From a virus: a stretch of 22,165 bases of DNA. Both the position numbers and the translations under genes were made by a program. The stretch covers positions 1-22,165 of IMG/VR virus record IMGVR_UViG_3300044655_001105; one strand, 5' to 3'. Below are positions 1-8,251 of this stretch, piece by piece (the first letter of the stretch is position 1; the number at the start of each line of letters is the position of its first letter). Under the pieces are notes generated by a model. The model worked only from the letters and a program-made list of their open reading frames with translations. It was not told where the DNA came from and did no database searches.

Positions 1-282
1 AAGGTACATCGTTACGAGCCAAGGTCTATGATTACGACGATGTGCCACGATAAGAGTGCGATCATTGCAGTCGCGCAGTGCTTGATCCATGGCAGCATCC
101 ACGTTTAGGCGCTCTACTCGTTTGCATTCGATATGATAATTCGCCAATTCGCTGCACACTACGTCAGAATCTCCGGCGGCACCGCAGAATTGTTGAGTAC
201 GTCTAGCCGTATAGCCATGCTCGCGTAGTTTGGCGGCTAGTTCTCGTTCGCCTGCTGATCCTTTGGCCTTTGAGTTTGTCAT
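1..282 (-). CDS. Hjc-like PDDEXK Holliday junction resolvase (3' part missing)
   Basis: The gene starts at ATG 282 and runs off the left edge, leaving 94 residues. The visible protein has the layout of the small archaeal-type Hjc/phage PDDEXK nucleases: an N-terminal helix with GERE (E12), a basic stretch, then GDSDVV (D40), then the ECK element (E52, K54), which together supply the metal-binding and catalytic residues. It continues with a helix ending in DQAL and a strand with VAHRRN and PWLVTM (about 79-92), as expected for the end of the fold. Such enzymes cut branched DNA made by recombination and replication before packaging. Its ATG overlaps the stop of the upstream gene by one base (TAATG), so the two are probably translationally coupled. 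It is the last visible gene of an operon that begins with an annealing protein, which fits a recombination role. The family call is fairly sure; branched-DNA specificity is inferred. Confidence 0.8.
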   Translation of the reverse strand, partial: MTNSKAKGSAGERELAAKLREHGYTARRTQQFCGAAGDSDVVCSELANYHIECKRVERLNVDAAMDQALRDCNDRTLIVAHRRNHRPWLVTMYL

Positions 283-2196: not shown

Positions 2197-2424
2197 TTAA
2201 AACGGTACTTTATCGTCGCCTGATTTCTCGCCAAGTTTTTTCAGATGCGTTGCAACCCACTTCAGTTCGCTTCGCAAAAGTCTAAGCTCATGCGCGAGCA
2301 AAAGAACTTGTCCTGCTGTTGAAGCTGCTACGGCCTTGTACTGCTCGCTGTATCCAACTAGACTTTCGGCTTCGCGCAACAAGGCTTCTGCCTCCCATTC
2401 TTCCCTACTCTTTTTCTTGAACAT
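2197..2424 (-). CDS. Hypothetical helical protein (75 aa)
   Basis: ATG 2424 is preceded by AAGGAT at a suitable distance and is chosen over the upstream TTG. The protein is basic at the N-terminus (MFKKKSREEWEAEA), then strongly helical with heptad-like leucines (LLLAHELRLLRSELKWVATHLKKL), suggesting a coiled coil or small oligomer. It overlaps the end of the helicase-loader-like gene by 20 bases. Its position right after that gene hints at a replication accessory role, but nothing in the sequence proves it. Confidence 0.55.
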   Translation of the reverse strand: MFKKKSREEWEAEALLREAESLVGYSEQYKAVAASTAGQVLLLAHELRLLRSELKWVATHLKKLGEKSGDDKVPF

Positions 2425-2932
2425 GACCAATCCTTTTTGTCATTAAGTTATCGATTAACACCTGCACATTCTCTTGGTTTGCGTTGCCTCTGTCCATCAC
2501 TTGCTTGCTTTCCAAACGCTGCCGAAATTGAGCGCGGACAATGGCTATTTTGTCAGGGTCGCAAGCCGCTAATTCTTTAAGCCCTACAACACCACCAACA
2601 GCTGCCAATGCCGCTGGTGGTAGTTTTTTAGCCTCTTCGTCGGCATAGTAGGTACTTCTTTGTGCGGCTATCATGACCCGCTCCCACAACTTGCCCCAAT
2701 CTTCTTTAAAACCAGCACGAGCCGTCAAAACCGCTTGATTGACTTCGCCTACCGTAGGAGGGAACTGCCTATTTTCGCCCAACAGCGCGATTACGGCGGC
2801 TTGTACTTCGTCGTAAGAGGCATGATGTAGGACCATCTGCCATACCTTATACCGATCCCTACTGAACAAGACTTTGTTCCCAAACTCAGCAGCTAACACC
2901 TTGAATATCTGTCGGACCTGTTCATCAGTCAT
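2405..2932 (-). CDS. Replicative helicase loader/inhibitor, G39P-like
   Basis: A 175-residue protein. Residues 1-70 follow the pattern of the G39P/helicase-loader N-terminal domain: an amphipathic helix (DEQVRQIFKVLAAEF), a second helix (RYKVWQMVLHH), a Tyr-Asp turn leading into a helix with AAVIALL, then FPPTVGEV (about 57-64) before another helix. The C-terminal half is Ala-rich and ends in a helix with FRQRLE and a flexible polar tail, as in loader proteins that contact DnaB through a disordered tail. Such proteins deliver or hold the host or phage DnaB-type helicase at the phage origin. The start overlaps the upstream frame as ATGA; the nearest SD-like GAGG is about 12 bases upstream. No helicase gene lies in the window. 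The domain call rests on pattern only. Confidence 0.55.
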   Translation of the reverse strand: MTDEQVRQIFKVLAAEFGNKVLFSRDRYKVWQMVLHHASYDEVQAAVIALLGENRQFPPTVGEVNQAVLTARAGFKEDWGKLWERVMIAAQRSTYYADEEAKKLPPAALAAVGGVVGLKELAACDPDKIAIVRAQFRQRLESKQVMDRGNANQENVQVLIDNLMTKRIGHVQEKE

Positions 2933-3294
2933 TGTATATATCCCTCATAACAAAAAATTAACTTGACACACTCCCAATTCTCCCCCCTAATACCCCTGAC
3001 CCCAAAACACCCCCCTATCCGTTCGCTTCGCTCACTCTGTTGTTTCCCGCAATGCATCGCATCTGTAATGCTCTTGCATTGCCAATTTCTTCTGTTATTG
3101 AAATTAAACCCTACGGGTTTAATATGATCAGTTCGAGTTTGAATGCTGTAGGGTTGCATCTCAATGATGCACAAGACGTATTCTGATCTGCTTGAGTCAC
3201 AGCATCGGTTGTCTTGCACCTCAATGGTGCACAATACTGTTGGGCTACTTAGCTGTGTTGGTGATTTGCATTTCTTGTGATATATTTTTCTCAT
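2929..3294 (-). CDS. Doubtful Cys-rich ORF opposite a structured region
   Basis: From ATG 3294 this frame encodes 121 residues. It has a good SD (GGAG about 5 bases upstream) and ends with ATGA overlap on the helicase-loader gene, both arguing that it is translated. Against this, the product is unlike a normal fold: Cys-rich, with a 20-residue imperfect repeat (VLCTIEVQ... and VLCIIEMQ...) that is simply the translation of two DNA palindromes, and a low-complexity Ser/Arg/Gly stretch. It also covers exactly the stretch that on the other strand has a promoter-like element, stem-loops and a terminator. I regard real coding and accidental reading of a structured nucleic acid element as about equally likely. 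Confidence 0.4.
   Translation of the reverse strand: MRKIYHKKCKSPTQLSSPTVLCTIEVQDNRCCDSSRSEYVLCIIEMQPYSIQTRTDHIKPVGFNFNNRRNWQCKSITDAMHCGKQQSERSERIGGCFGVRGIRGENWECVKLIFCYEGYIQ
2963..2991 (+). promoter_or_regulatory. Plus-strand sigma70-like promoter
   Basis: A consensus -35 TTGACA (2963-2968) is followed by a 17-bp spacer and CCTAAT (2986-2991, four of six matches to TATAAT). Transcription would start near 2998 and run toward the terminator at 3325-3359, giving an RNA of about 360 bases that crosses no plus-strand gene. A second possible start is TTGGTG (3258-3263), 17 bp, TATATT (3281-3286), which would give an RNA of about 67 bases. Confidence 0.4.
3154..3234. repeat. Two palindromic 21-bp repeats, 60 bp apart
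   Basis: Copies at 3154-3174 and 3214-3234 match at 19 of 21 positions. Each has the core TGCAYC-TCAAT-GRTGCA. The two differences (T to C and A to G) are at paired positions 6 and 14, so the palindrome is kept. The core of copy 2, TGCACC, five bases, GGTGCA, has the half-sites and spacing of an NtrC binding site; no -24/-12 sigma54 promoter was seen nearby. Confidence 0.7.
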
Positions 3295-3324
3295 GTGTCT
3301 CCCCCGTCTTGTCAACGGGACTTG

Positions 3325-3359
3325 CCCATCGATAGCCTCATACTATCGGTGGGTTTTTT
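3325..3359 (+). terminator. Rho-independent terminator, plus strand
   Basis: An 11-bp stem (CCCATCGATAG 3325-3335 with CTATCGGTGGG 3343-3353, one G-T wobble), a 7-base loop and six T residues (3354-3359). On the minus strand the stem is followed by GCAAGTCC, not a T run, so it should stop plus-strand transcription only. No protein gene lies upstream on that strand, which is why a non-coding transcript is proposed. It ends three bases from the CCA end of the tRNA gene. Confidence 0.75.
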
Positions 3360-3361
3360 AT

Positions 3362-3437
3362 TGGCTGAGGCGGTAGGGATCGAACCTACGACATGGCGAT
3401 TAACAGTCGCCTGTTCTACCAACTGAACTACGCCTCA
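3362..3437 (-). tRNA. tRNA-Asn (anticodon GUU), CCA encoded
   Basis: Read on the minus strand this is a complete 76-base cloverleaf. It has a 7-bp acceptor stem (TGAGGCG with CGCCTCA), a D-arm GTTC...GAAC with an AGTTGGTA loop, an anticodon stem GGCGA/TCGCC with loop CTGTTAA (anticodon GTT), a 5-base variable loop, a T-arm GTAGG-TTCGATC-CCTAC, discriminator G and encoded CCA (3362-3364). It lies inside the leftward operon between two protein genes, so it is probably co-transcribed and cut out by host RNases. All arms pair without mismatches, which argues for a working tRNA rather than an attachment-site remnant. Its job is probably to supply Asn-tRNA during phage translation. Confidence 0.95.
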
Positions 3438-3443
3438 GTTTGC

Positions 3444-3698
3444 TTATTCTTGGTTGAAAAGTTCATCGATGCATGACTGCAACCACAAAATCCCGTCTTG
3501 CTGACCCTTTTCGAAATCACTCTTACCAGGATTGATTAGCCCAATTAACCGTTCTGTTTCTTTGTCCAAATGCGCTTTAAGGGCCCTAGCACCGTTTAGG
3601 TAAGCCCTTTCAAGCTTCCTCCTATCCGTAGGGCTACTCAGCGGTGTTTCGGGCCGTAGCGTTGATTGTGAGGCTTCTGCTTCAATTTTACTTTTCAT
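3444..3698 (-). CDS. Small helical phage protein (84 aa)
   Basis: The start is ATG 3698, with a GAG SD-like stretch about 10 bases upstream and an 11-base overlap with the end of the ribbon-helix-helix gene. A polar N-terminal stretch is followed by helices (RKLERAYLNGARALKAHLDKETERLIGLI) and a C-terminal helix (FEKGQQDGILWLQSCIDEL). Both helices contain a weak form of the FxxGxxxG/A element found in other small proteins of this phage. No known family was recognised. The tRNA-Asn lies just downstream in the same transcript. Confidence 0.6.
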   Translation of the reverse strand: MKSKIEAEASQSTLRPETPLSSPTDRRKLERAYLNGARALKAHLDKETERLIGLINPGKSDFEKGQQDGILWLQSCIDELFNQE

Positions 3699-3897
3699 TT
3701 GGTGTCTCAAAGTTAGTCCAGTTCTCCAATGCCTCTTGGAGGGCTACGATCAGTGTCTTGTTTTCTGATTTTGCTACATCCTTGAATTTTTGGAGTAGTT
3801 CAATCCGAACGTGGCACGTCCACCGATCGAAGCCCTCTCTGGGCTTGTCGTAGTTCAAAGCGCGAGGGTACTGCTTTCGTTTCTTGCGCTTTTCCAC
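3688..3897 (-). CDS. Ribbon-helix-helix DNA-binding protein
   Basis: GTG 3897 follows the bet stop by two bases; TTG 3915 is an alternative start. The 69-residue product has a very basic N-terminal arm (EKRKKRKQYPR) and then an Arc/CopG-type layout: a short strand (WTCHVRIEL, about 26-34), a helix (LQKFKDVAKSENK) and, after a short turn with T and L, a second helix (VALQEALENWTN). Proteins of this fold dimerise through the strand and insert it in the DNA major groove, usually acting as repressors. Placed directly after the annealing protein, it may autoregulate this operon; the CTGTATACAG palindromes are possible targets. Fold call moderate, regulatory role inferred. Confidence 0.65.
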   Translation of the reverse strand: MEKRKKRKQYPRALNYDKPREGFDRWTCHVRIELLQKFKDVAKSENKTLIVALQEALENWTNFETPNEK

Positions 3898-3899
3898 AA

Positions 3900-4691
3900 T
3901 TAATCCACGATGCAAGTTGTTAGTTTCTCAAGCCTTATGGGACATTCCCACAGGCCATCACCGATCTGCTTGCAGCTTGAAGAAGTAAGGTAGGCTTCAG
4001 CTATTTCTAACTTGTTACCTTCCAAGCCCGAGACGTCGTAGCGGGTTTTAATTGCCTTAGTTTTCTTGGGCGATTCCTTTAATGGAGCACTCTCCCAAGG
4101 CAATTCATCGCTCGATGCCTTAACTTCACCTGTTTCCCGATCACATGAAACTTCTTGAGTCTCAGATACAGGTAAAGAAACAACAGACTTAACATTGTGA
4201 CTAGCGTACTCACTTGGCATTTCCTCTTGTGTATATAAACCGCCTAGTTCTTGAATAAATGCTTCCCTTATGGCGAGACTTTTCGCGCACTTTGAGAGCA
4301 TAACTGTAGGCATCGTTTTCCACACCGGACTTGGCTTGTTGTACTCATTCCAATAAGCCGTAGCTATTGACGGGAATTTTCTATCCTTGCGGTGTACTTT
4401 TACAGTACAGCTAACAAGCGTTTTACCATCCCACTCAAAAGACACTTCCATGCCATCGAATTGGGAATGACTGTTAGCGATACGAAGGAATCCGTTGATT
4501 CCAGTCATAAGCTGCAAACGACCGTTAGCCTTAATGGCCCACATCTCTTTGGTCAGTGGGTTTAGCCCGGTTGTTTTGCAAATCTCAACAAAAAGTTGAA
4601 ACTCCGCATCCGTCAGTTCTTTGGCAATGCTGTTGCGCAGGGCGTGCAACATCTCGATTACGCTTGGTGCTATCAAAACATCTTTGCTCAT
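3900..4691 (-). CDS. bet: Bet/RecT-family single-strand annealing protein
   Basis: A 263-residue protein whose N-terminal 165 residues carry the hallmarks of the lambda Bet branch of RecT recombinases. These are LTDAEFQLFVEICKTTGLNP (26-45), KEMWAIKANGRLQLMTGINGF, a central strand region with WDG and KVHRKD, and MLSKCAKSLAIREAFIQELGG.YTQEEM. It would anneal complementary single strands, normally with an exonuclease partner that is not in the window. The C-terminal part is a polar linker, then a short domain with two Cys (SSSCKQIGDGLWECP) that could be a host-SSB or partner contact; this is a guess. ATG 4691 has an excellent SD (AAGGAG). It is the first gene of the long leftward operon, which also holds a resolvase and helicase loader. 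Confidence 0.9.
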   Translation of the reverse strand: MSKDVLIAPSVIEMLHALRNSIAKELTDAEFQLFVEICKTTGLNPLTKEMWAIKANGRLQLMTGINGFLRIANSHSQFDGMEVSFEWDGKTLVSCTVKVHRKDRKFPSIATAYWNEYNKPSPVWKTMPTVMLSKCAKSLAIREAFIQELGGLYTQEEMPSEYASHNVKSVVSLPVSETQEVSCDRETGEVKASSDELPWESAPLKESPKKTKAIKTRYDVSGLEGNKLEIAEAYLTSSSCKQIGDGLWECPIRLEKLTTCIVD

Positions 4692-4737
4692 ATTGTCTCC
4701 TTATTGTTTAGCCCGAAGGCTTTTCACGCACCTTACT

Positions 4738-4747
4738 CTGTATACAG
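4738..4747. promoter_or_regulatory. CTGTATACAG palindrome, copy 2
   Basis: Identical to the 10-mer at 2181-2190. It lies about 47 bases before the bet ATG and about 80 bases downstream of the inferred start of the leftward transcript, a position suited to an operator or roadblock. The ribbon-helix-helix protein coded in this operon is one candidate binder; this is inference. Confidence 0.4.
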
Positions 4748-4833
4748 CGGCATCGCAAGGTGGTTCCTAAATGATTTTGAAAATGATTCGAGTTGTCAGA
4801 ATTTTTTTAAAAACCCGATCACTTTGGTCCAAT

Positions 4834-4890
4834 TTTATACTTAGGCTACACCGACATTTACACGACAGTTTGCCGACAGTATCTCGACAA
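4834..4890 (-). promoter_or_regulatory. Pho-box-like activator array and -10 for the bet operon
   Basis: On the minus strand four 7-bp units TTGTCGA, CTGTCGG, CTGTCGT and ATGTCGG are each separated by 4 bp (GATA, CAAA, GTAA), giving an exact 11-bp period (TGTCG cores at 4889, 4878, 4867 and 4856 downward). Eleven bases after the last unit comes TATAAA (4839-4834). This is the layout of PhoB-type promoters, where tandem CTGTCAT units with A/T-rich 4-bp spacers replace the -35 element about 10-11 bp before the -10. No TTGACA-like -35 fits this -10. The fifth base of the core (G instead of A in CTGTCAT) departs from the E. coli consensus. Confidence 0.55.
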
Positions 4891-5016
4891 TCAGCCGAAG
4901 GATGATGGCAGAATGCCACCATGCCGACCTAATTCAGCCCGTGATACACCTCTCCTGTTGGCAGGATTAACCTACCCCATAATCACCCCCCTTTATCGTG
5001 CTACGATTGCCGCTGC

Positions 5017-5388
5017 TTACGGCAAAAAGTTAAGACTCGGACCCTGCATTGGTTGTCCCAATGCGTCATTCGGCAGAATGCTAGTCACCGTTCGCTTATA
5101 GGTATGGTTGGGATCTCCAAGACTCTTTCTAAGCCAATCTGTCGATTCCCTCTCGGTAGTCACAACGCTATACCCCGTACCCCACGGACCAGCATAACGC
5201 CCTTGCGGGATAGGTATTGCAGGACCGAAGGGAGGCGCAACCGGCACTACTTCAGATGGGTAGAGATTGCCAAAACCGGCAGCACCCGCAAGATTGCCGA
5301 CACCGTTTGCAACTAGGTATTCAGCAGCGGTCTGAGCATGTGCAGTGGTCGCACAGGCAAGTAATATAGTGAGTGTAATGTATCGCAT
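5017..5388 (-). CDS. Secreted protein with Sec signal peptide
   Basis: ATG 5388 has a GGAG about 9 bases upstream and gives a perfect signal peptide: MRY, a hydrophobic core (ITLTILLACATTA), and the AHA-Q cleavage motif after residue 18. The mature part of about 105 residues is Gly/Pro-rich (a PVAPPFGPAIPIPQGRY stretch) and ends with a TVTSILPNDALGQPMQGPS segment. There is no lipobox, so it should be soluble in the periplasm or outside. I recognise no family. It is the last gene of the second leftward operon, preceded by a 32-residue membrane peptide. Early secreted phage proteins sometimes change the cell envelope or block superinfection; here that is inference. The 73-base gap before it can fold into two hairpins (5406-5429 and 5429-5447). 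Confidence 0.75.
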   Translation of the reverse strand: MRYITLTILLACATTAHAQTAAEYLVANGVGNLAGAAGFGNLYPSEVVPVAPPFGPAIPIPQGRYAGPWGTGYSVVTTERESTDWLRKSLGDPNHTYKRTVTSILPNDALGQPMQGPSLNFLP

Positions 5389-5461
5389 GTAAGTATCTCC
5401 GATATGCATCGGCACCATGCCGACCATGCACACCCCCGAAGAGTGTGCCGGGTCTACACGG

Positions 5462-5560
5462 TTACAATGCAAACACGAGGATCAATGCGGGGTAGGCTAG
5501 GACTACTAGCACTAGCAGGCCGATAGCATCTTCGATACATTCGCGGGTTGTGGGTGTCAT
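5462..5560 (-). CDS. 32-residue single-pass membrane peptide
   Basis: A short gene. ATG 5560 overlaps the upstream stop as ATGA and is preceded by AGGAGG about 10 bases before, lying within the Glu-repeat coding of the upstream gene. The product has a polar N-terminus (MTPTTRECIEDA) and then an uninterrupted hydrophobic helix (IGLLVLVVLAYPALILVFAL) to the stop. With so few residues it can only be a membrane peptide. Possible roles include inhibition of a host membrane protein, superinfection exclusion or holin-like activity; the sequence does not choose between them. It is co-transcribed with the secreted protein downstream. Confidence 0.7.
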   Translation of the reverse strand: MTPTTRECIEDAIGLLVLVVLAYPALILVFAL

Positions 5561-5751
5561 ATGCTTGCCGCCTCCTCTTCTTCTTCCTCTTCTTCTTCCT
5601 CTTCTTCTTCCCATCCGTAATCATGTGCCATATCGGCTATGTCATCCTCCGACATATATCGCAGTGCCGCTAACGCTATAGCCTCCCACGTAATTACGCC
5701 GTTTTCTGCTAGTTCGATAAGATAGTTGGTTGATTGTCTTACGTTGCTCAT
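5557..5751 (-). CDS. Small acidic phage protein with poly-Glu tail
   Basis: ATG 5751 (SD AGGGGA) gives 64 residues. The core (YLIELAENGVITWEAIALAALRYMSEDDIADMAHDYGW) follows a pattern I have seen in small uncharacterised phage proteins, with WE.IA..AL.YMSEDD.ADM as its signature. It ends in 13 consecutive Glu and AASI. The Glu run is coded by about three copies of a 12-base unit, a microsatellite (5570-5608) that may vary in length. The same repeat supplies the SD for the membrane peptide gene that overlaps its stop (ATGA). Function unknown; the tail could mimic DNA charge, which is speculation. Confidence 0.65.
   Translation of the reverse strand: MSNVRQSTNYLIELAENGVITWEAIALAALRYMSEDDIADMAHDYGWEEEEEEEEEEEEEAASI
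5570..5608 (-). repeat. 12-bp microsatellite coding poly-Glu
   Basis: Three near-perfect copies of CCTCTTCTTCTT (plus-strand reading) give 13 Glu codons in the 64-residue protein. Length change by slippage in steps of 12 or 3 would alter the Glu tract without shifting the frame. The same bases hold the AGGAGG that serves the overlapping membrane peptide gene. Confidence 0.7.
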
Positions 5752-5782
5752 AATGTGTCCCCTGTTTACCATTGTTAGTCAT

Positions 5783-6013
5783 TTATTGTTTAGCGAAACG
5801 CGCAAGTTTGGCAGGGTTTTGATTGTACGGATCGTGAAGACCCACGTCATCAGCCCAAGTGTCAAACTGTGCACGCGGTACTAGTTTCACCGTGCGCCAC
5901 GTTGCGCCCTGGTTACTTTGCTGAATTGCTACAGCTGACTCATTCGCGAGCACGCGATAGCTGTAACCGCCGAAAGCTGATTGATTGCGAAAGATTTCTG
6001 TTTTGCGTGTCAT
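5783..6013 (-). CDS. Hypothetical protein (76 aa)
   Basis: ATG 6013 has a clear SD (GAGGAAA about 7 bases upstream). The product begins with a basic segment (MTRKTEIFRNQ) and a beta-rich part (GGYSYRVLANESAVAIQQS, TWRTVKLVPRAQFD), followed by a polar, Asn-rich C-terminus. It resembles no family I can name. It is the second gene of the leftward operon driven from about 6350, separated by only 29 bases from the first. Confidence 0.6.
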   Translation of the reverse strand: MTRKTEIFRNQSAFGGYSYRVLANESAVAIQQSNQGATWRTVKLVPRAQFDTWADDVGLHDPYNQNPAKLARFAKQ

Positions 6014-6042
6014 GTGTGTTTCCTCGTTAGTCGGTTAGTCGG

Positions 6043-6309
6043 TTACAGTTGAACGGGTGTTAATCCCGTGTTGTGTGCGTTTTCAATTACATACTGAGGA
6101 GCGGTCACTACGTTGAACGTATGTCCCTCTTTTATTAGCGTGTCGATGTAGAACGTTATATGTTTGCTAGTTGTAACGCTGAACTTGCGCTCAGTGCGGT
6201 ATAGTGTTGAGCCGGTAAATACCGCTACCGGGGTTTCATATGAGACAAGGATGCGTAATCCGTTGTTGTCTATCTCTGTGAGTTGTTTAGCTCCGAACTT
6301 GCGTATCAT
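6043..6309 (-). CDS. Small phage protein, SYxTPVA / TTSKHI type
   Basis: ATG 6309 with SD AGGAGA about 6 bases upstream; first gene of the second leftward operon. The 88 residues contain LRILVSYETPVAVF, then YRTERKFSVTTSKHITFYI. That arrangement (a strand ending in SY.TPVA, then YRT..K.S.TTSKHI) recurs in small uncharacterised phage proteins, possibly those now called DUF8033, though I cannot confirm the family number. No function is known to me. The inverted repeat at 6330-6349 sits just upstream in its leader. Confidence 0.65.
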   Translation of the reverse strand: MIRKFGAKQLTEIDNNGLRILVSYETPVAVFTGSTLYRTERKFSVTTSKHITFYIDTLIKEGHTFNVVTAPQYVIENAHNTGLTPVQL

Positions 6310-6329
6310 GTGTATCTCCTATGTTTGAT

Positions 6330-6349
6330 CTCAGCTAGTCAGTGCTGAG
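6330..6349. promoter_or_regulatory. Operator-like inverted repeat
   Basis: CTCAGC (6330-6335), eight bases, GCTGAG (6344-6349). It lies just downstream of the leftward -10 at 6357-6362, about where transcription would begin, so a bound repressor would block the leftward operon. The XRE-type gene next to it is the obvious candidate binder. The nominal GTG start of that gene (6342) lies inside the repeat. Confidence 0.5.
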
Positions 6350-6728
6350 TAGGTACAGGATACATGAGGGAGGATTCACTGTAAACGGAGAAAATAGAAA
6401 ATTATGGGTTGGAGAGGCAATCAGCAGCTTATACGGTAAATCAGTGGACACTGAACGGATGGTAGGAAGACGAGTACAAACAGGGCTGACAGCGTCTAGG
6501 ATACGCGAGGAGCGACGAACGACCGGCGTACTATACAAACTGGTACGGTCAAGGCTCGGCATCTCTCAGGAGGCTATGGGCCGTTTGCTAGGGTGTAGCC
6601 GTTATTGCATCCTGCATCGCGAGCGTACAAAGCACGTATACTCGCTTGAGGAGTTAGTGGCGTTGCAAGAATTGACAGGTATCGATGGTCCGGAGTGGTG
6701 GGCACTCATCAAAGAGGTAGCCAAGTAG
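6342..6728 (+). CDS. XRE-type helix-turn-helix regulator
   Basis: The C-terminal half (residues about 64-113 from the GTG at 6342) is a helix-turn-helix of the Cro/CI (XRE) type: VLYKLVRSRLGISQEAMGRL, then LGCSRYCILHRE, then a long helix with LEELVALQELTG. ISQEAMGRLLG is the helix 2 and recognition-helix entry typical of the family. The start is uncertain: GTG 6342 has no SD and lies inside the leftward operator, so GTG 6444 or ATG 6459 (89 residues) may be the true start. The first 40 residues do not look like a folded domain. It is divergent from the leftward operon whose promoter it overlaps, the classic position for a local repressor. Confidence 0.7.
   Translation: MLSRYRIHEGGFTVNGENRKLWVGEAISSLYGKSVDTERMVGRRVQTGLTASRIREERRTTGVLYKLVRSRLGISQEAMGRLLGCSRYCILHRERTKHVYSLEELVALQELTGIDGPEWWALIKEVAK
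6357..6385 (-). promoter_or_regulatory. Leftward sigma70-like promoter
   Basis: On the minus strand: TTTACA (6385-6380, five of six matches to TTGACA), an exact 17-bp spacer, then TATCCT (6362-6357, four of six). Transcription would start near 6350 and give a leader of about 40 bases before the ATG at 6309. This is the best promoter candidate for the operon 6309 to 5017. Confidence 0.55.
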
Positions 6729-6741
6729 GTGATATCATTAC

Positions 6742-7017
6742 ATGCCAACACCTAACCCCGCAGAATCACAGAAGATAATTTACTTAACGAGAAATAGAAA
6801 ACTATTAAGCAACCTAGCCTCCCTCCGCCCCAACGGAATCAATAGGTTAGGCAGGGCAAGGGGTAATCTGATTCCAATGGGATACGCGCTAACTACCAGT
6901 CCCGGCAGGGTTTTCGCTTTTGGTTTCAATTTGAAAACGGAGGGTCGAGGACAAGCGGCGGCATCTACCTACCCACAAAAAATTCCAAATATCCCATTCA
7001 AACACAGTTATGTCTGA
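6742..7017 (+). CDS. Doubtful ORF upstream of the small terminase
   Basis: ATG 6742 has an AGGTGA about 10 bases upstream and the frame ends overlapping the next gene by 8 bases, so translational coupling is possible and would explain why that gene has no SD of its own. The 91-residue product is basic and rich in Asn, Arg, Pro and Gly, with no clear secondary structure and no recognisable family. Inside it is a possible stem (CCTAGCCT 6813-6820 with AGGTTAGG 6844-6851, one wobble). The stretch may instead be a leader, promoter or packaging site upstream of the terminase. Confidence 0.35.
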   Translation: MPTPNPAESQKIIYLTRNRKLLSNLASLRPNGINRLGRARGNLIPMGYALTTSPGRVFAFGFNLKTEGRGQAAASTYPQKIPNIPFKHSYV

Positions 7018-7784: not shown

Positions 7785-7968
7785 GGCTACTAGGCTGAAT
7801 TCGCCGGTTGATGTCTTTTATCGATGTCCCAAGTGTGACTGGATAGGGTATTGTGTGACTGACAGATATTACCTTCAGTGTGCTCAATGCAAGCGAGTAT
7901 TTGGCTGGAAGGGTAAGGGTAGGAATGTGACTAGGGAGATATATGACAGAAGATTTGAAAACACCTGA
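7765..7968 (+). CDS. Small zinc-ribbon protein
   Basis: ATG 7765 begins a 67-residue basic protein inside the last 20 bases of the previous gene. After a Lys/Arg-rich start, residues 18-48 form a zinc ribbon: CPKC (C21, C24) and CAQC (C39, C42), with an aromatic-rich hairpin between. It ends with a basic stretch (KGKGRNVTREIYDRRF). Such ribbons bind nucleic acids or partner proteins. No specific family was recognised; a role in transcription control or DNA packaging is possible but unproven. A good SD for the next gene lies in its last codons. Confidence 0.65.
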   Translation: MTKKKRKATRLNSPVDVFYRCPKCDWIGYCVTDRYYLQCAQCKRVFGWKGKGRNVTREIYDRRFENT

Positions 7969-8251
7969 GCAGGAGAATATGAACGATTTAGACAAAAATT
8001 ATAAAAAATTAAGGCAATTTGCGCTTACATATATTGTTAGAAATATAGAGCCACACGGTGATGTTCTTGTTCTTAGAAATTTACAAAACTGCTTTATTGC
8101 CGGTTACAATTACGGTCGGTTGCTGACAACGCAAGAAATTACCCAATGTGCAGAAATGGCAGCGTGGTCTAATCCACGTTTTTCTTTGGAAACGTTACTA
8201 TTTCCGCTTGGCTCATTCTTATTGGGTATGCTCATTCGGGGGTGGTTATGA
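7943..8251 (+). CDS. Small protein with C-terminal membrane segment
   Basis: ATG 7943 is preceded by AGGGAG about 6 bases upstream. The 102-residue product has a charged, helical N-terminal half, the motif NCFIAGYNYGR (FxxGYxxG type, about 50-60) and a C-terminal hydrophobic segment (LETLLFPLGSFLLGMLIRGWL) that could be one membrane span ending at the stop. It would sit in the inner membrane with most of the chain on one side. Codons here and in the next two genes look more A/T-rich than in the flanking structural genes, consistent with accessory cargo. Function unknown. Confidence 0.6.
   Translation: MTEDLKTPEQENMNDLDKNYKKLRQFALTYIVRNIEPHGDVLVLRNLQNCFIAGYNYGRLLTTQEITQCAEMAAWSNPRFSLETLLFPLGSFLLGMLIRGWL

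What the first reader, a model, noticed from the sequence alone, without database searches (positions are those of the whole stretch)
4834..4890. Pho-box-like four-unit array in front of the recombination operon
Four 7-bp TGTCG-type units spaced exactly 11 bp apart on the minus strand end 11 bases before TATAAA, and no -35 is visible. This is the promoter layout activated by PhoB-family response regulators (tandem CTGTCAT units with 4-bp A/T-rich spacers). If real, the phage bet/resolvase/helicase-loader operon would respond to host phosphate state or to a phage regulator with the same mode of binding. The G in CTGTCG is off the E. coli consensus, so another OmpR/PhoB-type protein is possible. 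The tandem repeats could alternatively be replication iterons.
Basis: partly seen in the sequence, partly recalled or inferred. Interest (0 to 1): 0.72.

Follow-up and report, generated by a model that had tools for sequence, protein, structure and literature searches.

The report
Origin-type repeat array before phage bet
A phage fragment carries four copies of a short DNA word exactly one helix turn apart beside its recombination gene; they look like the binding sites from which phages such as SPP1 start copying their DNA, not like a phosphate switch, and no protein that would be expected to read them was found in the phage.

Summary
The array is real: TGTCG four times on the minus strand at exact 11-bp spacing (4889-4852); 1 of 200 shuffles of the window holds a comparable array. 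It looks selected: a close relative (G007) has five TGTCG units while spacers differ (core 20/20 identical, spacers 11/24). The Pho-box reading fails: the best Pho-box match has three mismatches, 79 of 100 shuffles do as well, and TATAAA is lost in G007. The same unit and period lie inside genes for G38P-type phage replication initiators, in 48 of 120 viral stretches scanned. SPP1 gene 38, which contains oriL, has it with two of four units reading TGTCT. The window encodes a G39P-like helicase loader, and an AT-rich stretch adjoins the array. Among 17 records (window included), nine have a winged-helix initiator, six this loader, none both; the four loader records that cover the gap before bet have repeats in it. 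Best reading: an SPP1-like origin (iterons plus unwinding element). The gap is that no initiator was found in this phage; an operator for a phage regulator, such as the probable ribbon-helix-helix protein two genes down, remains the main rival.

The parts
4852..4889 (-). array of four TGTCG units, 11-bp period
   Evidence: unit conserved and spacers different in G007
4769..4843 (.). AT-rich stretch (73% A+T over 75 bp) on the bet side of the array; candidate DNA unwinding element
   Evidence: 0.09% of 75-bp stretches of the window are as AT-rich; a stretch at about 7937-8056, in a small gene, is richer (77%); in G007 the slot is the richest place of the record (72%)
4834..4839 (-).
4730..4758 (-). 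alternative promoter candidate TTGCGA-17-TAAGGT, read by eye; same hexamers in window, G007 and G003; not found by the consensus scan
   Evidence: sequences; the scan lists only CTGACA-17-AATCAT at 4799-4771, a chance-level count
3900..4691 (-). bet/RecT-type single-strand annealing protein gene, first gene after the array
   Evidence: phrog_252 3.4e-41, PF03837 1.6e-27
3688..3915 (-). probable ribbon-helix-helix DNA-binding protein, second gene after the array; candidate binder
   Evidence: look of the sequence; low-confidence model of residues 11-75 with two helices; weak PDB hit 2k9i E 0.39 among chance hits
3362..3437 (-). tRNA-Asn (GTT)
2405..2932 (-). helicase loader related to SPP1 G39P
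   Evidence: PF11417 22.5 bits, cut-off 22; phrog_9804 4.9e-14 and phrog_2289 1.2e-5, the two families that SPP1 G39P hits best; hhalign prob 86, E 5e-6 over 78 columns
2197..2430 (-). small gene found with the loader in four relatives; protein ends in DDKVPF
   Evidence: presence table
1..282 (-). RusA-like/PDDEXK resolvase (cut by window end)
   Evidence: phrog_244 9.3e-18
5017..5472 (-). gene on the other side of the slot; a signal-peptide-like stretch seen by eye
   Evidence: conserved in relatives
6342..6728 (+). HTH_31-type regulator, divergent; a less likely binder
   Evidence: PF13560 4.9e-5, 24 bits, below the cut-off of 27; present in records with and without the array

Best explanation
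The array is the initiator-binding part of the phage's replication origin: iterons of the SPP1 oriL/oriR kind in the noncoding gap before bet, with the adjoining AT-rich DNA as unwinding element. An initiator protein would bind the TGTCG units cooperatively along one face of the helix, open the AT-rich stretch and recruit the phage's G39P-like helicase loader, which brings in a DnaB-type helicase. Shown here: the array, its conservation as units rather than as sequence, the same unit and period inside SPP1 gene 38 and other G38P-type genes, the loader, the AT-rich stretch, and the exclusion between winged-helix initiator and loader in the records compared. Inferred: that it works as an origin, that the SPP1 array is the set of repeats which gp38 binds, which protein binds here, and the order of events. 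No initiator gene was found in the phage, so the binder is either an unrecognised phage protein or one supplied by the host or another element. It works like an SPP1 origin; it is not filed as a member.
For: (1) 48 of 120 viral stretches with a 4-unit TGTCGN6 array have it inside an initiator gene of the A1 profile; the one compared with phage records (L016) matches SPP1 gene 38 at 53.7% identity over its residues 6-137. (2) SPP1 gene 38 holds TGTCT,TGTCT,TGTCG,TGTCG at 11-bp period; gp38 is reported to bind direct repeats of oriL, inside gene 38, and of oriR, beside an AT-rich unwinding element (PMC6316719, passages; the repeat sequences are not given there). (3) SPP1-like phages have further TGTC units in the late region: 000TH010 has TGTCG x3 at 11 bp plus TGTCT 12 bp on, at 5253-5291 within a short annotated hypothetical gene; 049ML003 has two groups of three TGTCT/TGTCG units, 11-12 bp apart, in the gap 4469-4803. 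(4) The window's loader hits the same two PHROG families as SPP1 G39P and aligns with it. (5) The slot beside the array is the second most AT-rich place of the window and the first of G007. (6) Of 17 records, 9 have a winged-helix initiator, 6 the loader, 0 both; the 5 initiator genes inspected hold repeated 10-mers (no control run), while the 4 loader records that cover the slot (G000, G002, G009, G010) have repeats in it. (7) Core 20/20 against spacer 11/24 identity, Fisher p 5e-5; array-to-bet distance 160 and 159 bp.
Against: No winged-helix initiator in the window, G002 or G007 by three searches, although SPP1 needs G38P. 72 of 120 viral TGTCG arrays are not in such genes. Neither control pattern was clean: GCTGT and CTTGG arrays also lie in these initiators (38 of 82, 10 of 120), so the 11-bp period with varying units marks the family more than TGTCG itself. 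The A1 profile was built from 29 array-bearing genes, so count (1) is partly circular. TGTCG arrays also stand before chromosomal XRE-type genes, where they look like operators (8 of 119). G003 and the L360/L361 phages have other repeats in the slot. The richest AT stretch of the window lies elsewhere, near 7970, and that of the G003 slot is unremarkable (7% of stretches reach it). In 000TH010 the second array is not strictly intergenic. Cumulative GC skew has its minimum at 5700, towards the divergent genes, and does not single out the array. The loader's structure search gave no significant hit.
Confidence: 0.47

Rival explanations
1. Operator for a phage-encoded regulator, most likely the probable ribbon-helix-helix protein encoded second in the same operon: dimers line up on the 11-bp direct repeats and control the bet operon, as ParR does on parC or omega on its heptads (comparison recalled).
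For: The RHH candidate is 95% identical in G008, which may be the other half of the G007 phage with five units (same metagenome, inference), and 55% in L360/L361 which have palindromes instead. The array stands upstream of the operon that encodes it. TGTCG arrays stand before XRE genes in 8 of 119 chromosomal stretches.
Against: The RHH assignment rests on eye and a low-confidence model. The other early genes also diverge in that order, so the correlation is weak. A protein with 32% identity occurs in G006, which has no array. It does not explain the shared unit with SPP1 gene 38 or the loader exchange.
Confidence: 0.28
2. Promoter activated by host PhoB or another OmpR/PhoB-family response regulator.
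For: 11-bp direct repeats are the usual geometry of this family (recalled); TATAAA lies 11 bp from the last unit in the window.
Against: Match to the Pho box no better than chance; G instead of A in 9 of 9 units, spacers not A/T-rich in G007, TATAAA lost in G007. Host unknown, so a family member of other specificity cannot be excluded.
Confidence: 0.06
3. Binding array of a host regulator of another family (for example the XRE genes with TGTCG arrays), captured by the phage to time expression of bet.
For: 8 of 119 chromosomal stretches have the array between 120 bp inside and 200 bp before the start of an XRE gene, on the gene's strand in all 12 counted gene-array pairs.
Against: Host unknown; none of the 120 viral stretches shows this arrangement by the same rule.
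Confidence: 0.08
4. Packaging or recombination site (arm-type sites, pac or cos) rather than an origin.
For: In a separate group of up to 38 viral stretches the arrays lie mostly 0.5-1 kb from a terminase small-subunit-like gene (family checked on L059 alone).
Against: No integrase among the window proteins scanned; the terminase large-subunit gene lies 4.4 kb away in the divergent operon.
Confidence: 0.05

Closest known systems
SPP1 oriL and oriR with G38P/G39P (Bacillus phage SPP1)
   Same: TGTC(G) units at 11-bp period in gene 38, where oriL lies; AT-rich neighbour reported; loader of the G39P family, RecT-type annealing protein and resolvase genes in the same phage; oriR reported in an intergenic region (PMC6316719, passages)
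   Different: No G38P-type initiator found here; array beside bet; loader is 49 residues longer and only its first 80 residues align
TP901-1 and Tuc2009 replisome organizer/ori (PMC8965321, passages)
   Same: Origin reported as a region rich in direct repeats bound by a phage replisome organizer
   Different: There the repeats lie inside the organizer gene; here they are noncoding. Their sequences were not compared
Pho box / OmpR-PhoB tandem repeats
   Same: 11-bp direct repeats, TGTC core
   Different: G at the fifth position, spacers and -10 not conserved, match no better than chance
ParR/parC and other ribbon-helix-helix direct-repeat sites (recalled)
   Same: short direct repeats, probable RHH gene in the operon
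   Different: no ParM among the window proteins scanned; RHH assignment weak

Membership tests
SPP1-type origin (G38P boxes) | direct repeats TGTC(G) at 11-bp period | tested here: met
   that these are the repeats gp38 binds in SPP1 is inferred from their place
SPP1-type origin (G38P boxes) | adjacent AT-rich unwinding region | tested here: met
   0.09% (window) and 0.01% (G007) of 75-bp stretches reach it; second-richest place in the window, first in G007; weak in G003; unwinding itself not testable
SPP1-type origin (G38P boxes) | cognate G38P-type initiator encoded by the phage | tested here: not met
   no match in G000, G002, G007; the records are fragments, but by comparison with G005 and L354 the early region of the window lacks little
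SPP1-type origin (G38P boxes) | G39P-type helicase loader encoded by the phage | tested here: met
   Pfam hit just above cut-off; structure search without significant hit
SPP1-type origin (G38P boxes) | initiator binding and replication from the site | not testable with these tools
   needs binding and replication assays
PhoB box | CTGTCAT units | tested here: not met
   3 mismatches at best; 79 of 100 shuffles have a match within that limit
PhoB box | A/T-rich 4-bp spacers | tested here: not met
   12 of 16 A/T in window but 10 of 20 in G007, counted from the spacers
PhoB box | -10 hexamer about 11 bp downstream, no -35 | tested here: inconclusive
   TATAAA in window, TTAAGA in G007
Ribbon-helix-helix operator | RHH protein encoded nearby | tested here: inconclusive
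Ribbon-helix-helix operator | binding of that protein to the repeats | not testable with these tools
   needs gel shift

The most novel reading that the evidence does not exclude
A lineage of phages has exchanged the usual origin module (winged-helix initiator with iterons inside its gene) for a noncoding iteron slot plus a G39P-like loader, and starts replication with an initiator that is not of the G38P kind: either a new small phage initiator (perhaps the ribbon-helix-helix protein) or one borrowed from the host or a co-resident element. The slot has switched repeat type (TGTCG array, or 21-bp-spaced palindromes) between relatives while the loader stayed.
Probability: 0.25. Interest if true: 0.66.

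Novelty: new variant of a known kind. Interest (0 to 1): 0.42.

Why it matters
If it is an origin, such repeats could be recognised in uncultured phages from unit and period, also where no initiator gene is found, and the exclusion between initiator and loader in the records compared points to a replaceable replication module. It raises a testable question: how does a G39P-type loader find an origin without G38P? If it is instead an operator, the finding warns that TGTCG arrays at 11 bp serve both replication and regulation.

Tried and rejected
Pho box: rejected. Host DnaA origin: no DnaA-type box (TTWTNCACA) within 500 bp of the array in the window. Decayed initiator gene on the opposite strand: the array is in the right orientation, but bet and the 5017-5472 gene leave too little room (inference); a weak hit in G007 at 528-695 (E 0.087) covers the array itself, so I read it as the linker-like peptide that the array would encode. 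Binder among the small genes at 5557, 5783 and 6043: no homologs in G007 at E 0.01, which has five units. HTH_31 gene as binder: no TGTCG between 6240 and 6420 of the window, and it occurs in relatives without the array. RNA element: only the tRNA found. GC skew: not informative. Reversed-unit and permuted-unit controls: not clean, see evidence against. Phage DNA search with window 3600-6800: no match. Loader structure search: no hit with E <= 0.001; a DnaB-phage lambda P loader entry at E 0.74. Host: terminase relatives with at most 42% identity in many hosts, so the host stays unknown.

A1 holds 29 members chosen from the 44-locus cluster. Searches covered 17 records; G001 and the records of L005, L363, L369 and L370 were not included. 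One search inspected 5 of the 9 initiator genes and had no control. Two of the six loader records (G008, G011) do not reach the slot before bet.

Full report
On the minus strand TGTCG occurs four times at exact 11-bp spacing between 4889 and 4852, followed by TATAAA at 4839-4834. One of 200 dinucleotide shuffles of the window contains any 5-mer four times at any period from 9 to 13. The same phage in two other records (G001, G002) has the identical array, and two-unit matches occur nowhere else in them.

The array is conserved as units, not as sequence. In G007, a relative whose bet is 89% identical over the part it covers, there are five TGTCG units. In the four aligned units all 20 core positions agree but only 11 of 24 spacer positions do (Fisher p 5e-5; 7 of 24 in the other register), and the distance to bet is 159 bp against 160. 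G003 (bet 83%) keeps two units, followed by palindromic repeats. G004, G005 and G006 (bet 54-57%) have none, nor has L005 in the 500 bp before bet. Two further relatives, L360 and L361, have two palindromes TAYGCAA-N3-TTGCRTA exactly 21 bp apart in the same gap; G003 has one perfect and one degenerate copy, also 21 bp apart. The gap before bet is thus a slot that holds alternative repeat types.

The Pho-box reading was tested and fails. The one match to CTGTCATN4CTGTCAT in the window within 3 mismatches is the array, but 79 of 100 shuffles contain such a match. The fifth base is G in all nine units of window and G007; the 4-bp spacers are A/T-rich in the window and not in G007. TATAAA reads TTAAGA in G007. 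A by-eye promoter candidate, TTGCGA-17-TAAGGT at 4758-4730, has the same hexamers in window, G007 and G003 (sequences); the consensus scan does not list it and finds one site, about what shuffles give.

What else carries such arrays? In 48 of 120 viral stretches the array lies inside a gene matched by a profile of initiator-like proteins; by eye it encodes a linker after an HTH-like N-terminal part, and in 49 of 50 cases, viral and chromosomal together, CGACA is on the coding strand. The profile was built from 29 such genes, so this count is partly circular; independent support is that the two proteins tested (L016, L056) hit PHROG replication-initiation and DnaD-like families, as SPP1 gp38 does, and that L016 matches SPP1 gene 38. 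Two intended control units were not clean: 38 of 82 GCTGT arrays and 10 of 120 CTTGG arrays also lie in such genes, because the initiators' repeats come with different units, such as TGTTC and TGTCC, at the same period. The association is stronger for TGTCG than for CTTGG (48 against 10 of 120). Up to 38 other viral stretches belong to a group with arrays beside an exonuclease and a terminase small-subunit-like gene (families checked on L018 and L059).

SPP1 supplies the functional anchor. Its gene 38 holds TGTCT, TGTCT, TGTCG, TGTCG at 11-bp period. The review of its genome states that gp38 binds the direct repeats of oriL, within gene 38, and of oriR, each with an AT-rich unwinding element, and that the loader gp39 and helicase gp40 act with it (PMC6316719, passages; PMC3485210, abstract and passages). 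The passages give no repeat sequences, and the binding studies cited there were not read; that the array is the bound repeat set is inferred from its place. In the SPP1-like phage 000TH010 three exact TGTCG units and a TGTCT 12 bp on lie at 5253-5291 in the late region, within a short annotated hypothetical gene (5113-5304); in 049ML003 the gap 4469-4803 of that region holds two groups of three TGTCT/TGTCG units 11-12 bp apart. I take both as oriR-like. Lactococcal phages TP901-1 and Tuc2009 likewise have their origin in direct repeats within the organizer gene (PMC8965321, passages).

The window phage has the partner loader. The protein of 2405-2932 hits Pfam's G39P family just above cut-off and the same two PHROG families as SPP1 G39P; hhalign aligns its first 80 residues with G39P at probability 86. 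Its predicted structure is of modest quality and found no significant relative. The DNA between array and bet is AT-rich: 0.09% of 75-bp stretches in the window and 0.01% in G007 reach its value; it is 0.4% in the locus L360, 0.9% in L361, and unremarkable (7%) in G003. It is the richest place of G007 but the second of the window, after one near 7970.

The initiator is missing. Profiles of array-bearing initiators and PHROG 270 find nothing in G000, G002 or G007. Among 17 records, the window's included, 9 have a winged-helix initiator by PHROG 270 (G004-G006, G012-G017), 6 have the loader (G000, G002, G008-G011), none has both, and 2 (G003, G007) have neither but end inside bet. The records are not independent: G000/G002 are one phage, G008/G011 and G004/G005 look near-identical. 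PHROG 270 is permissive, ringing in 12 of 14 control genomes. The five initiator genes inspected hold repeated 10-mers, in G005, L362 and L364 at 21-22 bp spacing (no control). Of the six loader records four cover the slot, and these have repeats in it. So relatives seem to exchange an initiator gene with inside repeats for a loader plus a noncoding repeat slot.

The most economical mechanism is an origin of the SPP1 kind whose binder is unknown. What is shown is anatomy and kinship of the parts; origin function, binding and the order of events are inference. The main rival is an operator for a phage regulator. The gene after bet encodes a probable ribbon-helix-helix protein, but this rests on its look, a low-confidence model and a weak PDB hit. 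Chromosomal TGTCG arrays directly before XRE-type genes in 8 of 119 stretches show that the motif can sit where operators sit. A combined role, origin and control of bet, is possible.

Literature: searches for the motif as text and for phage iterons, initiators and loaders listed no paper whose title or abstract start, or the passages I opened, describes this array or the 11-bp TGTCG period; the listings were not read in full, and the library lacks most subscription journals, so this is no proof of novelty.

Noticed in passing
L135, L169, L196, L203, L209, L222, L228, L236: Chromosomal TGTCGN6 arrays at the start of genes with an RTIQR(I/L/M)E-type HTH motif, several of them small XRE-like proteins (Salinivibrio, Glutamicibacter, Azoarcus, Rheinheimera among the named ones); probable autoregulatory operators.
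   Followed up: partly
L137, L160, L165, L176, L177, L189, L191, L224, L243: TGTCGN6 arrays in or beside genes of one protein cluster that looks like AlbA_2/RecG-like regulators (name recalled) with a winged-helix tail.
   Followed up: no
L011, L017, L018, L059 and up to 34 other viral loci: TGTCG arrays beside an exonuclease (phrog_298) and a terminase small-subunit-like gene; L059 has two arrays in opposite orientation about 100 bp apart.
   Followed up: partly
L360 5563-5600, L361 3053-3090, L266 777-814: Two palindromes TAYGCAA-N3-TTGCRTA 21 bp apart in the slot before bet (one copy degenerate in L266); elsewhere in these sequences only matches with 3 mismatches.
   Followed up: partly
window 2197-2430: Small protein encoded with the loader ends in DDKVPF, like the C-terminal tip of SSB (recalled); the G005 winged-helix protein ends in DDFCPFD.
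   Followed up: no
window 2933-3330: Probably noncoding stretch between tRNA-Asn and the loader with two copies of TTGTGCAYCATTGAGRTGCAA, each holding an inverted repeat; no Rfam match beside the tRNA.
   Followed up: partly
genome contig OY282365.1 (L138, L141, L152 and others): One Dehalococcoidia chromosome supplies 12 of the 80 listed rows of the chromosomal scan, so the motif is multi-copy there.
   Followed up: no
window 5573-5611: 12-bp tandem repeat of CTT type that encodes a run of glutamates near the end of a 71-aa protein.
   Followed up: no
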